Source: Megamonas hypermegale (GTDB lineage: Bacteria > Bacillota > Negativicutes > Selenomonadales > Selenomonadaceae). From it: a stretch of 64,000 nt of DNA. Positions 6,112-58,045 of this stretch are shown here, in pieces. The notes under the pieces are model-generated. The model made no database searches, was not told where the DNA came from, and was given only the letters and a program-made list of their open reading frames with translations. The stretch spans positions 1,302,001 through 1,366,000 of the forward strand of contig NZ_LT906446.1 in the NCBI RefSeq assembly GCF_900187035.1. Reading direction: 5' to 3'. The first letter of the stretch is position 1, and each line of letters begins with the position of its first letter. Both the position numbers and the translations under genes were made by a program.

Positions 6112-6360
6112 ATAAAAAAATCTCCTCCATCCAAAAGGACGAAAGAGATATTTCGCGGTACCACCTAATTTTTTCTGCATAATTTTAACAGAACTTCATT
6201 ACTTAACGCTGTATCTGCGCCCATGCCTAATACTATTTCAGCATGAGAACTCCAAAGCTACTTTCTAGATACTTGGCTGGAAAATTTCTCAGCTAATTAT
6301 TTTCTCTCTGTTCAGTCCGTATATATCTATACTCTCTTCTTCATCGTTTTTACTACATTA
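6112..6360 (-). promoter_or_regulatory. T-box leader of valS
   Basis: The leader carries the hallmark T-box sequence AGGTGGTACCGCG (minus strand, 6154-6166), followed at once by a 13-bp terminator stem with UUUU loop and a T-run (6148 down to 6113). The upstream part begins with GATGAAGAAGAGAGTA-like stem I sequence near 6340, typical of T-boxes. The antiterminator would form when uncharged tRNA pairs its acceptor end with the TGG bulge. Valine specificity is inferred from the downstream gene, since I could not place the specifier triplet with certainty by eye. This accounts for the gene-free stretch between valS and ptsH. Confidence 0.93.
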
Positions 6361-22590: not shown

Positions 22591-23055
22591 TTCTGCTTTA
22601 GTCGTATTATGAGGTCTCGTTCATATAGAAACGCTACTTTCTATACAGTTCTCTTATGAACTTCCGTTACTTTCGTAACGGCACAGACTATATCTTATCC
22701 CTCAGCTTTACCTGTTAGAGTCTGTCCACTTCCTCAGTCAATAGCTTACTGAGTACTTCCCTCAAGAGGAATAATCGTTGAACGTTCTCCTATTCGGAGC
22801 TTCGCTGCTGATTGTCCATTTTTCAACACTTAGGATTTAACCTTATGCTATATATCTGATTTTTTCTGCTTTCGCCACATTCACGTTTAACTTTATTTCA
22901 TGTTTACGTTGTAGTTCAGATATCTTTAGGGCTTTCCAGCAATTCAAACAGTATTGGATAGATCTTAGTCTATCTCTACGTACATATTTCTATATACGCT
23001 GACTATTTTGTTCGCCTAACTCATGATTAAAATCACAAGTGTGCGGTTCACAATA
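22591..23055 (-). ncRNA. group I self-splicing intron core (5' part of IStron)
   Basis: Conserved core strings are present in the expected order on the minus strand: the P/Q-region GGACAATCAGCAGCGAAGCT (complement of 22798-22817), the R element GTTCAACGATTA (22772-22783), the S element AAGATATAGTCTG (22684-22696) that completes P7, and a P9 hairpin CCGTTAC-GAAA-GTAACGG (22664-22681) with a GNRA tetraloop. The internal guide GTCAG (22999-23003) pairs with the 5' exon TTGAT with a terminal U-G pair at the splice site, and the pairing extends into AATA/TATT. Catalytic ability is inferred. The R-S pairing includes one G-U wobble. Confidence 0.85.
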
Positions 23056-53298: not shown

Positions 53299-54672
53299 AT
53301 GAAAACAAAAATTCCTGTTCAATTAGGGCAGAAATATGAAATAAAAATAACCGGTATGGGACAAAGTGGTGAAGGCGTTGGTCGCTATGAAAATTTCACT
53401 GTATTTGTACCTTATGCACTTCCAGGTGAAACAGTCGAAGCTAAAATCACTTTAGTCAAAAAAAATTATGCTACAGGTGAAATCGTCTCTATAATCGAAA
53501 AAGCATCTGACCGAATTAAACCAATTTGTTCCGTTTATGATGATTGCGGTGCTTGCCAGCTTCAACATTATTCCTACGATGCTCAACTTCATGCTAAACA
53601 ACAAAAAGTCATCGACATGATGGAACACATCGCTATAAAAAAAGACATCATAATTCACCCAACAATGCCTTCTGTAAATGAATGGCATTATCGCAATAAA
53701 ATGCAATTTCCTATCGGTCGCACAAAAAAAGATGGTATCATTGTAGGCTGTTATGCTCATAGTTCACATAATATCATTAACACTGAAATGTGCCATATTC
53801 AAAAACACACTAATAATGTAATTGCCAATGCAGTTCGTGAAATGGCAACAAAATTTAAACTAAGTGTTTACGATGAAAAAACTCATTATGGACTTTTGCG
53901 CCATGTTGTCGGCCGCACAAATCGCGATGAAACACAAGCTATGGTCGTACTCGTCACAGCTCAACCTAAAATTCCTCGCGTTCGTGAAATCGTAAATTTC
54001 TTGCGCAGTAAAATTCCTAATCTCACTAGCATTGTCCAAAACATCAATACAGGCAGAAATAACATCATCATGGGCAAAGAATGCAAAATCTTATGGGGTT
54101 CTTCTCATATAACTGATAGACTAGGCAGTTTGAAATTTAAGATTTCCGCATTATCTTTCTTCCAAGTAAACACTGAACAAGCTGAAAAATTATATGAATG
54201 TGCTTTAAAATACGCAAATCTCACTGGTAAAGAAACAGTTATCGACGGTTATTGCGGTACCGGAACAATCTCCTTATTCTTAGCTCAAAAAGCCAAAAAA
54301 GTATACGGTATGGAAATCGTACCGGAAGCAATCCGCGATGCTATCGCTAATGCACGCGATAACAACATAAAAAATGCTGAATTTTTAACAGGCGATGCTG
54401 CAAAACTCATGCCTCAACTTTATCGCAAAGGATTGCGCCCTGATGTAATCGTAACAGACCCACCACGTGCTGGTTGTGCTCCTGAAGTATTAAAAACCTT
54501 TGCGGCAATGCAACCAAAACGCATTGTTTATGTATCTTGTAACCCAGCTTCACTTGCTCGCGACATCGCTATCTTAGATGAACTCGGTTACAAAGCATTG
54601 GAAATCCAACCTGTAGATATGTTCCCACAAACAGGACATGTTGAGACAGTTGTTCTTTTAAATAAAAAATAA
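53299..54672 (+). CDS. rlmD: 23S rRNA (uracil1939-C5)-methyltransferase family protein
   Basis: A 457-residue RumA-type RNA methyltransferase. It has an N-terminal TRAM domain (IKITGMGQSGEGVGRYENFTVFVPYAL), iron-sulfur Cys residues in CSVYDDCGACQLQH near 77-90, the SAM motif DGYCGTGTISLFLA near 318, TDPPRAGC near 395 and the catalytic Cys in YVSCNPASLARD near 418. Firmicutes carry several paralogues (RlmD, RlmCD), so the exact uracil modified is uncertain. ATG at 53299. A very long hairpin ends the gene. Confidence 0.92.
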   Translation: MKTKIPVQLGQKYEIKITGMGQSGEGVGRYENFTVFVPYALPGETVEAKITLVKKNYATGEIVSIIEKASDRIKPICSVYDDCGACQLQHYSYDAQLHAKQQKVIDMMEHIAIKKDIIIHPTMPSVNEWHYRNKMQFPIGRTKKDGIIVGCYAHSSHNIINTEMCHIQKHTNNVIANAVREMATKFKLSVYDEKTHYGLLRHVVGRTNRDETQAMVVLVTAQPKIPRVREIVNFLRSKIPNLTSIVQNINTGRNNIIMGKECKILWGSSHITDRLGSLKFKISALSFFQVNTEQAEKLYECALKYANLTGKETVIDGYCGTGTISLFLAQKAKKVYGMEIVPEAIRDAIANARDNNIKNAEFLTGDAAKLMPQLYRKGLRPDVIVTDPPRAGCAPEVLKTFAAMQPKRIVYVSCNPASLARDIAILDELGYKALEIQPVDMFPQTGHVETVVLLNKK

Positions 54673-54736
54673 ATATATCTATATAAAAAGAGTTTGGATT
54701 AACCAAACTCTTTTTATATAGATATATTTATTTTTT
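54671..54736. terminator. 59-nt perfect-arm hairpin (bidirectional terminator)
   Basis: Arms 54671-54697 and 54703-54729 are perfectly complementary over 27 bases with a five-base loop (ATTAA), followed by ATTTTTTTA. The stem starts at the rlmD stop codon and is unusually long for a terminator. Confidence 0.9.
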
Positions 54737-54985
54737 TACTATTTAATTCTACTCTTAATGATATATTAAAATAGCAAAACGTTTTTATGCTATATCTTGA
54801 CACTATATATAATTTATATATAATTTATATATGCAAATTATATATAAATTTATATTTATTTCTATAACCATAATTTATTAATAAATATATATTTAATATA
54901 TATTTAAAAAGGACTAAAAAAAATACATAAATATATTTACAAGCTTTTTTTGACTTTCTTACAGACAACTATACTATAAAATATA
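54737..54985. other. very AT-rich spacer before the restriction-modification genes
   Basis: This stretch is nearly all A and T with nested short palindromes such as ATTTATATAT...ATATATAAAT (about 54820-54860). It holds no gene that I can support. A TTGACT near 54951 with TATAAA 19 bp later, and TATAAT further down near 54981, may be the promoter of the following genes. Confidence 0.6.
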
Positions 54986-55008: not shown

Positions 55009-56934
55009 ATGCTTAGATATAATATAATAGAAACTATTGGAAAGGAGTTTTTAACTAGCAATACAGAAACAGGTGAATATAGTTATGTTTACGCTGCTGG
55101 TGGAAAAACTCAATTAGAAAAAAAAGTTGGTCATCCTGTTTCCCACTTTAAATTAGATATCCGGTTTGAATATGATGATATTGTGGTTTTAGTTGAAACA
55201 AAACAACATTTTATTCTTAATGATGAAAAACAACTAAAAGATTATTTAGAAGAAGAAAAGGCACTTCATCCAACTAAAAAAGTAATCTGTATCTTAGCTA
55301 ATACAACAAATGATAAAATCAAAGTTTGGAAATCATTTATTGATAATGAACACTTATTAATCAATGAAACAGTATTAGATAAAATGTCCCATTATGTTAA
55401 ACTATTTAAAATAAATAAATCTAATGATAGAGAAACTGTACTGAAAAATACTTATTCTTTAAATGAATTACTGCACAAAAAAGATATAGATGAACATCTT
55501 CGTAGCCAATTTGTAGGAACCTGTTTATTATATATTAAGGATATTATAAAGAAAAAAGGTATTGTTTTAATCACAAAAGAATTCGTAAATTCTTTAAAAG
55601 AAATATGGATTTTAATGACTCCTAAAGGTATCCGAGGCGCAATTGAAGGTGTATTATCAGACTTACTAGATGGTTCTGACAATAAAGCTAAAAAGATTGA
55701 ATTACTTCAAAAAAATATTTTAGAAAATCAAAAAGTTAGAGCTTTAAAAACCGATGATTGGACTGAAATTCTTGAAACAATCATTTTAAAAATATATAGA
55801 TACATTGATACAGATAGTTCAGAAGGGCAAGACATTTTAAATATGTTTTTTATTGCCTTTAACAAATACACTGGAAAAGCAGACAAAAATCAAGCTTTTA
55901 CACCCGACCATATCACAGAATTTATGTGCAGAATTACAGGTGTAGACCGCACAAAACGTATATTAGATGCAACATGTGGAAGCGGTTCTTTTTTAGTACA
56001 AGCAATGGTAAAAGAGCTAGCTGATTGTAGACGAGGAAAAACAGAAGACGAAGCATTATCTCTTATGAAAAAAGTAAAAGAAGAACATATTTACGGTATT
56101 GAAATAGAAGAAAAAGCGTATGGTCTTTCAACGACAAATATGTTAATTCATGGCGATGGAAACAGTAATATAAAATTTGGTAATTGTTTTTATTGTAAAC
56201 AATTTATTATAAAAGCAAATCCAGATATTATTCTTATGAATCCACCTTATAATGCAAAGCCAATTGGTATTCCCGAAAAATATAAAATTGATTGGGGAAA
56301 ATCAAAAAATGGCAAAGAAGATCCAACAAAAGGACTAGTTTTTGTTCATTTCCTTTCAGATGTAATTAAAGAAATTAATGATAAAAGAGAAAAAGATGGA
56401 TTACCTCATAAAACTGTAAAAATGGCTGTTTTATTACCAGTTGCAACAGCAATTGGTAATAAAACTATTATTCAATCACAAAAAGTTTCTATGCTAAAAA
56501 ACAATACATTAGAAGCTGTTTTTACACTTCCAAATGATATTTTTTATCCTGGAGCATCTGCATCAGCTTGTTGTATGGTATTTACATTAGGTGAACCACA
56601 TATAAAAGCAGATGGAACCGTGAAAGAAACATTTTTTGGTTATTATAAAGAAGATGGATTTAAAAAGAAAAAAAATCTTGGACGTGTAGAACAATTTGAT
56701 GAAAATGGTAACAGTAAATGGAAAGCGATTGAGAACGAATGGCTAAAATTATTTAGAAATCATAAGGTAGTAGATGGTTTATCTGCCACCGCAGAAGTTT
56801 CTGGTAAAGATGAATGGCTTTGCGAAGCATATATGAAAACAGATTATTCTACTCTTTGTCAAGAAGATTTTCAACAGACACTTAATAATTATCTTGCATA
56901 TTTAATAAGAGAGGGCAAAATTTATGAATCTTGA
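55009..56934 (+). CDS. BcgI-like restriction-modification subunit: nuclease fused to N6-adenine methyltransferase
   Basis: A 641-residue protein. The N-terminal 130 residues carry a PD-(D/E)xK-like pattern, LDIRFEYDD...VETK, with Asp50, Glu63 and Lys65, similar to type I HsdR-N and BcgI-A nuclease domains. The rest is an HsdM-type methyltransferase: motif I DATCGSGSF at 320-328 and motif IV NPPY at 411-414, with an upstream FTPDHI helix. Length is close to what I recall for BcgI-A (637). Start ATG at 55009 follows AAAAGGTGA. It overlaps the specificity gene by 11 bases. Catalysis of excision on both sides of its site is inferred. Confidence 0.8.
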   Translation: MLRYNIIETIGKEFLTSNTETGEYSYVYAAGGKTQLEKKVGHPVSHFKLDIRFEYDDIVVLVETKQHFILNDEKQLKDYLEEEKALHPTKKVICILANTTNDKIKVWKSFIDNEHLLINETVLDKMSHYVKLFKINKSNDRETVLKNTYSLNELLHKKDIDEHLRSQFVGTCLLYIKDIIKKKGIVLITKEFVNSLKEIWILMTPKGIRGAIEGVLSDLLDGSDNKAKKIELLQKNILENQKVRALKTDDWTEILETIILKIYRYIDTDSSEGQDILNMFFIAFNKYTGKADKNQAFTPDHITEFMCRITGVDRTKRILDATCGSGSFLVQAMVKELADCRRGKTEDEALSLMKKVKEEHIYGIEIEEKAYGLSTTNMLIHGDGNSNIKFGNCFYCKQFIIKANPDIILMNPPYNAKPIGIPEKYKIDWGKSKNGKEDPTKGLVFVHFLSDVIKEINDKREKDGLPHKTVKMAVLLPVATAIGNKTIIQSQKVSMLKNNTLEAVFTLPNDIFYPGASASACCMVFTLGEPHIKADGTVKETFFGYYKEDGFKKKKNLGRVEQFDENGNSKWKAIENEWLKLFRNHKVVDGLSATAEVSGKDEWLCEAYMKTDYSTLCQEDFQQTLNNYLAYLIREGKIYES

Positions 56935-58045
56935 ATTTAAAAAATGGCATCAATATCAAATAAACGATTTATTTGATGTTGTTTACGGTGTTAATTTAGA
57001 ATTAAATGCTTGTATTGAAACCACAAAAAAAGATCCTGATTCTGTAAACTTTGTGTCCCGTTCAAAAGATAATAATGGGGTTACAGCATATGTAAAACTA
57101 ATAGAAGGTTTAAAACCACAAGATGCAGGAATTATTACTGTTGCTAGTGGTGGGAGTAGTGTGTTATCTACATTTGTACAAAATGAACCGTTCTATAGCG
57201 GGCGAGATTTATATCTGTTAATCCCTAAAAGCAAATACAAAAAAAATATGTCAATGGAAGTCAAACTATATATATGTACTATCATAATGAAAAATAAGTA
57301 TCGTTATAGCTTTGGCAGGCAAGCAAATAAAACCTTGCCATATATTGAGTTAAAGTTACCAACTAAAAACCATGAACCTGATTGGAATTTTATGGAAAAT
57401 TATATAAAATCATTACATCATAAACCTTTGACAACAAAGAATCATAATTATGATGTATTACCATTAATATATGATGATTGGAAAGAATTTATTTTAAATG
57501 ATATTTTTGAATTAAGAGGTGGTTTTTATAACAAAAAACCTGAACATTCTATAGAAGGTAAAATCCCATTTTTAGCATCTACTGAATCTAATAATGGAGT
57601 AACTGAATTTTATTCTTTAGAAGATATTAAAAGTTGGGATAAAATCGGAAATGAAGATAATACATTAGAAAAAAAATTATATCAAGGAAATTGTATTGCT
57701 GTAACTGTAAATGGCTCGGTATGTAATGCTTTCTATCAAAAAGAACAGTTTACTTGTAGTCATGATATTACAGCTTTCTATATTAAACAATATGAGATGA
57801 GTCCTTCCCTTGCAATATTTCTATGTACTATTATCATGAAAGATAAATATCGATGGTCTTATGGTAGAAAACCCCATGATATAAAAAAATTTGGAAAATC
57901 AATAATTAAACTCCCAATTAAACATAATTTAGATGGAACACCCTTTATTGATAACACTTATACATATTCTAAGAAAGGATATGTTCCAAATTGGAAATTT
58001 ATGGAAGATTATATTAAATCATTGCCATATGGTGATAGAATATAA
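56924..58045 (+). CDS. Restriction-modification specificity subunit with two target-recognition domains
   Basis: A 373-residue type I S-like protein. Each half contains the same order of elements: WHQYQINDLFDVVYGVN and WKEFILNDIFELRGGFY at the starts, SKDNNGVTAYVKL and STESNNGVTEFYSL, then CTIIMKNKYRYSFGRQ and CTIIMKDKYRWSYGRK. Both end in WNFMENYIKSL or WKFMEDYIKSL. Two target-recognition domains imply a bipartite DNA site. The recognised sequence cannot be predicted. It overlaps the methyltransferase/nuclease gene, so the two proteins are made together. No separate HsdR gene follows. Confidence 0.88.
   Translation: MNLEFKKWHQYQINDLFDVVYGVNLELNACIETTKKDPDSVNFVSRSKDNNGVTAYVKLIEGLKPQDAGIITVASGGSSVLSTFVQNEPFYSGRDLYLLIPKSKYKKNMSMEVKLYICTIIMKNKYRYSFGRQANKTLPYIELKLPTKNHEPDWNFMENYIKSLHHKPLTTKNHNYDVLPLIYDDWKEFILNDIFELRGGFYNKKPEHSIEGKIPFLASTESNNGVTEFYSLEDIKSWDKIGNEDNTLEKKLYQGNCIAVTVNGSVCNAFYQKEQFTCSHDITAFYIKQYEMSPSLAIFLCTIIMKDKYRWSYGRKPHDIKKFGKSIIKLPIKHNLDGTPFIDNTYTYSKKGYVPNWKFMEDYIKSLPYGDRI

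What the first reader, a model, noticed from the sequence alone, without database searches (positions are those of the whole stretch)
55009..58045. Two-gene restriction-modification system with BcgI-like architecture
A nuclease-like N-terminus (Asp50, Glu63-x-Lys65) fused to an N6-adenine methyltransferase is encoded with an overlapping two-TRD specificity protein, and no HsdR is present. Subunit sizes (641 and 373) are close to those I recall for BcgI A and B (637 and 341). Such type IIB enzymes cut on both sides of a bipartite site. A long hairpin and very AT-rich DNA border the module, hinting at horizontal gain.
Basis: partly seen in the sequence, partly recalled or inferred. Interest (0 to 1): 0.65.

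Follow-up and report, generated by a model that had tools for sequence, protein, structure and literature searches.

The report
BcgI-like type IIB restriction-modification system
Two overlapping genes encode a DNA-cutting and DNA-marking enzyme plus its targeting partner, a BcgI-like restriction system of a known kind whose relatives turn up in bacteria of many phyla with different targeting parts.

Summary
ORF 55009-56934 (641 aa) joins a nuclease-like domain, a helical connector and an N6-adenine methyltransferase. ORF 56924-58045 (373 aa) overlaps it by 11 nt and has two target recognition domains (TRDs). D50, E63 and K65 are kept in 86, 87 and 87 of 87 aligned rows. The model shows a PD-(D/E)XK-like strand order and aligns loosely, from residue 1, with the type IIB enzyme BsaXI. 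No HsdR is at the locus; the genome's two HSDR_N genes sit in complete type I operons. The BcgI-like reading is supported in architecture; cleavage on both sides could not be tested. One genome scan gave 254 relatives, 80 kept, RM identity 50-84%, in 12 labelled groups of the tree. Of 214 locus pairs with RM at least 75% alike, 160 share neither TRD in place at 60% identity; 49 of 66 S proteins have a TRD with such a relative at the other position. Single-chain fusions recur (8 of 88 loci). TRD movement is already described (PMC3077401). The hairpin looks like a terminator. Verdict: new member of a known kind.

The parts
55009..56934 (+). RM subunit (641 aa): nuclease-like domain (about residues 1-110), connector helices, N6-adenine methyltransferase (N6_Mtase match 284-549) and C-terminal tail
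55156..55203 (+). nuclease motif D50 ... E63-T-K65
   Evidence: sequence; kept in 86, 87 and 87 of 87 rows
55966..56250 (+). methyltransferase core, residues 320-414, from DATCGSGSF (cofactor site) to NPPY (catalytic motif)
   Evidence: motif roles recalled
56924..58045 (+). S subunit (373 aa) with two TRDs
56924..57421 (+). TRD1 with its short conserved helix (residues 1-166)
57458..58027 (+). TRD2 with its short conserved helix (residues 179-368)
54797..54824 (+). promoter-like site TTGACA-16-TATAAT, 12 of 12 matches; 26 promoter-like hits were found in the region against a mean of 28 in shuffles, so only a candidate
54664..54736 (.). 34-bp perfect inverted repeat, probable terminator at the end of the upstream RNA methyltransferase-like gene

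Best explanation
A two-gene type IIB (BcgI-like, also called multimeric type IIG) restriction-modification system. The 641-aa chain carries the nuclease and the N6-adenine methyltransferase; the 373-aa chain reads a bipartite DNA site through two different TRDs, so the site is probably asymmetric. Inferred mechanism: two RM chains sit on one S chain (RM2S), each methylating one adenine in one half-site; unmodified sites are cut outside the recognition sequence on both sides after several complexes meet, which excises a short fragment. Shown here: domain content, motif conservation, homology and gene arrangement. Inferred: stoichiometry, methylated base, cleavage on both sides, need for two sites.
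For: PADLOC: REase_MTase_IIG 3.6e-45 and Specificity_II 5.6e-35. Pfam N6_Mtase and Methylase_S. D50/E63/K65 kept in 86/87/87 of 87 rows, E20 and E23 in 85 (2 gaps each), Q75 in 86; BsaXI loses cleavage when E73, D90, E105 or K107 is changed (PMC11997821, passages), the same E...D...ExK order. The model (mean pLDDT 83) puts the motif on strands 51-55 and 58-65, followed by helix 70-86 and strand 91-98. VIA alignment with BsaXI 8w2p spans residues 1-586, Z 23.3 (rmsd 22.4 over 481, so domains are placed differently), and with DrdV 1-608, Z 20.2, rmsd 7.3 over 452. Homology to the phi-42 system: RM 29% over 275-631 (E 1e-35), S 24% over 1-365 (E 3e-21). Conserved coupling: S starts 10 nt before the RM end coordinate in 40 of 76 tabulated loci, 38 of 74 without the window's own two copies. 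Purifying selection against the Blautia homologue: dN 0.098, dS 1.70 (near saturation); nuclease part pN 0.146 against pS 0.759.
Against: The nuclease domain has no Pfam match and no convincing profile link to that of phi-42. PDB sequence matches cover only the connector and methyltransferase part. S alone found no S subunit among solved structures; its profile did (1ydx 9e-11, 1yf2 3e-4). The conserved helices of S are about 10 residues in the model (154-163, 357-366) against 42 aa for CR1 in BsaXI (PMC9159934, passages), so assembly may differ. No activity data.
Confidence: 0.9

Rival explanations
1. A type IIG-like enzyme that cuts on one side only, or nicks, despite the BcgI-like layout.
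For: The nuclease domain could not be tied to that of a published BcgI-like enzyme by profiles; the model also aligns end to end with DrdV (recalled as type IIG); single-TRD fused relatives exist.
Against: A two-TRD separate S predicts two RM chains in opposite orientation, one per half-site, as described for BcgI and BsaXI (PMC3874165 and PMC11997821, passages).
Confidence: 0.1
2. An epigenetic methyltransferase with an inactive nuclease.
For: No activity shown; some relatives have broken reading frames.
Against: Motif residues kept in 86-87 of 87 rows and fewer nonsynonymous than synonymous changes in the nuclease part.
Confidence: 0.07
3. A type I M/S pair that borrows an HsdR encoded elsewhere.
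For: Two HSDR_N genes occur in the genome.
Against: Each has its own M and S next to it (929/519/402 aa and 782/492/496 aa); the RM chain has a nuclease-like domain of its own; most relatives keep the same two-gene unit.
Confidence: 0.02

Closest known systems
BcgI (type IIB archetype)
   Different: BcgI's sequence was not compared; here S is longer than the recalled 341 aa; sequence specificity unknown
RM system of Staphylococcus phage phi-42 (X94423), taken to be Sau42I
   Same: two overlapping genes of 639 and 337 aa; methyltransferase and S homologous
   Different: only 24-29% identity; the motif region reads PEF...EDK there against LDIR...ETK here
BsaXI (type IIB, structures 8w0p, 8w2p, 8w2q)
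   Same: nuclease-connector-methyltransferase order; same E...D...ExK order of residues needed for cleavage
   Different: BsaXI RM is 916 aa with knob and paddle elements; its S has long conserved helices, here about 10 residues
Type I HsdM/HsdS
   Same: methyltransferase core and TRD fold
   Different: no HsdR at the locus and a nuclease-like domain on the M chain

Membership tests
Type IIB, BcgI-like | nuclease and N6-adenine methyltransferase in one chain | tested here: met
   nuclease by motif and model, not by activity
Type IIB, BcgI-like | separate S chain with two TRDs | tested here: met
Type IIB, BcgI-like | no HsdR at the locus | tested here: met
   HSDR_N genes are in other, complete operons
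Type IIB, BcgI-like | homology of methyltransferase and S to a published BcgI-like enzyme | tested here: met
   phi-42 system, both chains; BsaXI, RM chain by profile, S by fold at rank 8
Type IIB, BcgI-like | homology of the nuclease domain to a published BcgI-like enzyme | tested here: inconclusive
   profile comparison with phi-42 weak; structural alignment with BsaXI starts at residue 1 but rmsd is large
Type IIB, BcgI-like | RM2S assembly | not testable with these tools
   needs purified protein
Type IIB, BcgI-like | double-strand cuts on both sides of a bipartite site | not testable with these tools
   needs an assay
Type IIB, BcgI-like | m6A in both half-sites | not testable with these tools
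   needs a methylome
Type I | HsdR in the operon | tested here: not met
Type IIG, single chain | recognition domain fused to the RM chain | tested here: not met
   S is a separate ORF here; fused in 8 of 88 loci examined, window included

The most novel reading that the evidence does not exclude
This is one copy of a mobile type IIB chassis shared by bacteria of many phyla, many of them from gut samples: a strongly conserved RM chain that travels widely while its S chain is continually rebuilt from a common pool of TRDs, which at times also change position, and which in several lineages has collapsed into a single-chain enzyme with one TRD. One conserved engine with a countable TRD set would allow half-site specificities to be read off methylomes and predicted for the rest.
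Probability: 0.5. Interest if true: 0.45.

Novelty: new member of a known kind. Interest (0 to 1): 0.28.

Why it matters
As a single locus it is an ordinary, probably working restriction system. The family around it is the more useful part: one RM chassis at 50-84% identity across many phyla, carrying many TRDs, is a natural set for decoding which TRD reads which half-site and for finding new enzymes that excise short fixed-length tags.

Tried and rejected
Horizontal gain proven by hairpin and AT-rich borders: rejected as proof, since the hairpin fits a terminator. What does point to gain or rearrangement is synteny: in the one other genome held of the genus (G001) the upstream gene is 94% identical and, in the 10 kb compared, DNA similarity ends at its last codon, while pieces of the right flank lie at 0.64, 1.40 and 1.43 Mb and a 122-bp one at 1.23 Mb. 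No empty site was found; only two genomes of the genus are held.

Phase-variable S cassette (extra S genes near the module): looked for in the 114 loci held with the TRDs; more than one S-like ORF was seen only in L017, L027, L062 and L088, where they look like split S genes. Flanks of many loci are short, so this is a partial search.

Free shuffling of TRDs between positions: rejected in its strong form. At 60% identity and RM below 80%, 58 of 205 TRD pairs are cross-position against a mean of 102 if order were random (0 of 1000 shuffles as low); at 50% 195 of 475 against 237, at 70% 13 of 81 against 40. TRDs mostly keep their place. A first count there of 206 of 260 locus pairs sharing no TRD was too high because loci with partial S were included; the corrected count is 160 of 214.

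Free transfer between phyla: the tree labels are clustered (16 changes against a shuffled mean of 23.6, as low in 0 of 200), so there is vertical or within-group signal too.

N-terminal domain as a free-standing protein: two short hits were considered. G063's lies at a contig end; the G193 region was listed and not pursued.

The nuclease domain alone gave no Pfam match for the window protein and only sub-cut-off matches for three relatives. No NCBIfam match reached its cut-off. Predicting the recognition sequence was not attempted, for lack of TRDs of known specificity.

Full report
Observation. The larger has an N6_Mtase domain (residues 284-549) and the smaller two Methylase_S stretches. The best PADLOC models are a type IIG restriction enzyme-methyltransferase and a type II specificity subunit; type I methyltransferase and specificity models also match, more weakly.

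Nuclease. In 87 rows (the window plus 86 relatives with at least 40% identity over at least 550 aligned residues; shorter or more broken relatives dropped) D50 and R52 are kept in 86 (1 gap each), E63, T64 and K65 in 87, Q75 in 86 (1 Pro), and E20 and E23 in 85 (2 gaps each). Some rows are near-copies (82 different sequences of 85 in the tree). The AlphaFold model of the RM chain (42 sequences, mean pLDDT 83, pTM 0.74) has a helix, strands 51-55 and 58-65, helix 70-86 and strand 91-98, the order I expect of a PD-(D/E)XK nuclease (recalled). In BsaXI, alanine at E73, D90, E105 or K107 abolishes cleavage (PMC11997821, passages), the same order of residues. The model aligns with BsaXI 8w2p from residue 1 to 586 (Z 23.3, rmsd 22.4 over 481 residues) and with DrdV from 1 to 608 (Z 20.2, rmsd 7.3 over 452). 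The eleven higher-ranked matches start at residue 134 or later, and the tool warns that parts outside 137-612 are barely tested. The nuclease of the phi-42 system could not be linked by profiles, and the window's nuclease domain has no Pfam match.

S subunit. The model (32 sequences, mean pLDDT 89.6, pTM 0.61) shows two similar mixed alpha/beta halves, each ending in a helix of 10 residues. Foldseek's best matches are type I S subunits 1yf2 and 1ydx, with BsaXI S at rank 8; the profile matches 1ydx and 1yf2 by sequence, the single sequence none. TRD1 and TRD2 are 29% identical, so an asymmetric site is likely but not shown.

Genome context. The genome (one contig, 2.23 Mb) has two HSDR_N matches, each in an operon with its own HsdM and HsdS: 929/519/402 aa and 782/492/496 aa, with Methylase_S matches in both. 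The S protein has no other match in the genome at E 0.001. In the other genome of the genus the best RM match is E 9e-9 at 30% identity, and similarity breaks at the end of the upstream gene.

Relatives. One scan of genome contigs gave 254 relatives among 391 pattern matches, 80 kept, 50-84% identical (the best is Blautia schinkii at 84%); one of viral contigs gave 7. Plasmids hold homologues at 53% (Ligilactobacillus salivarius) and 49% (Macrococcoides caseolyticum). Titles name Clostridia, Bacilli, Elusimicrobia, Spirochaetes, Kiritimatiellae, Bacteroidales, Melainabacteria, Alphaproteobacteria, Caviibacterium, Rodentibacter, Corynebacterium, Helicobacter, Planctomycetes and Synergistetes; many are metagenome bins, so some assignments may be wrong. 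In a quick tree of 85 rows the 12 labelled groups need 16 changes (11 is the least possible) and Bacillota alone 12 (7 forced by well supported branches); labels are nevertheless clustered (shuffled mean 23.6). This suggests transfer but, as the tool says, does not prove it.

S diversity. Of 88 loci with an RM chain of at least 40% identity over 500 residues (window included, near-copies included), 65 have a separate S that a script split into two TRDs, 3 more have a long S that it failed to split, 7 have a short or partial S, 5 have none near the RM end (two of these, L089 and L112, carry an S behind a broken RM frame), 7 have one TRD or a partial stretch fused to RM, and 1 has two TRDs fused to RM. 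Some missing or partial cases lie at contig ends. For the 66 S with two split TRDs (RM aligned for 65), 214 locus pairs have RM at least 75% identical: in 10 both TRDs are at least 60% alike in place, in 44 one, in 160 none; 49 of 66 have a TRD with a relative of at least 60% at the other position. The window's TRD2 is 69% identical to the first TRD of L053 and its TRD1 59% to the second TRD of L039. TRDs still keep their position more often than random order would give.

Comparison with print. Movement of TRDs between positions was described for type I S subunits and a type IIG S subunit in Helicobacter pylori, including genes reduced to one TRD (PMC3077401, abstract and passages), and in BsaXI a permuted S and a single-TRD S remain active (PMC9159934, abstract and passages). 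BcgI-like systems as RM2S enzymes cutting on both sides are reviewed in PMC3874165 (passages); single-chain IIB enzymes in PMC4027205 (passages); the need to bridge two sites, for nine of ten enzymes tested, in PMC1892151 (abstract and passages). So neither the system nor the TRD traffic is new in kind. A listing of 10 of 67 papers for type IIB, BcgI-like and horizontal gene transfer (two of three terms) showed no survey of this family in its titles; that is one search of open-licence papers only.

Conclusion. A new member of the BcgI-like type IIB kind, probably functional, possibly acquired, with specificity unknown.

Noticed in passing
window 22664-23003 (-): Group I intron (Rfam RF00028, 66.7 bits) in an apparently intergenic stretch between a 3D-domain-like protein gene and an RNase M5-like gene (names recalled from the sequences); ARAGORN found no tRNA in the window.
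   Followed up: partly
window 6132-6353 (-): T-box leader (RF00230, 125.6 bits).
   Followed up: no
G000:C1:362734-365105: A further HsdM-like frame (658 aa) beside a weak Methylase_S match (489-aa frame), with no HSDR_N match near it.
   Followed up: no
L022, L063, L073, L076, L079, L084, L094: RM chain fused to a single TRD or partial S (806-837 aa; L073 runs on to 934 aa). Six of the seven are in the RM tree (L022 was left out) and lie in several clades, suggesting repeated origin of one-TRD single-chain enzymes.
   Followed up: partly
L027 (Lactobacillus iners plasmid) and L017: S-like genes split into two half-size ORFs.
   Followed up: no
L062, L089/L112, L095: RM frames with internal stops in relatives: one each in L062 and in the identical L089/L112, many in L095.
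   Followed up: no
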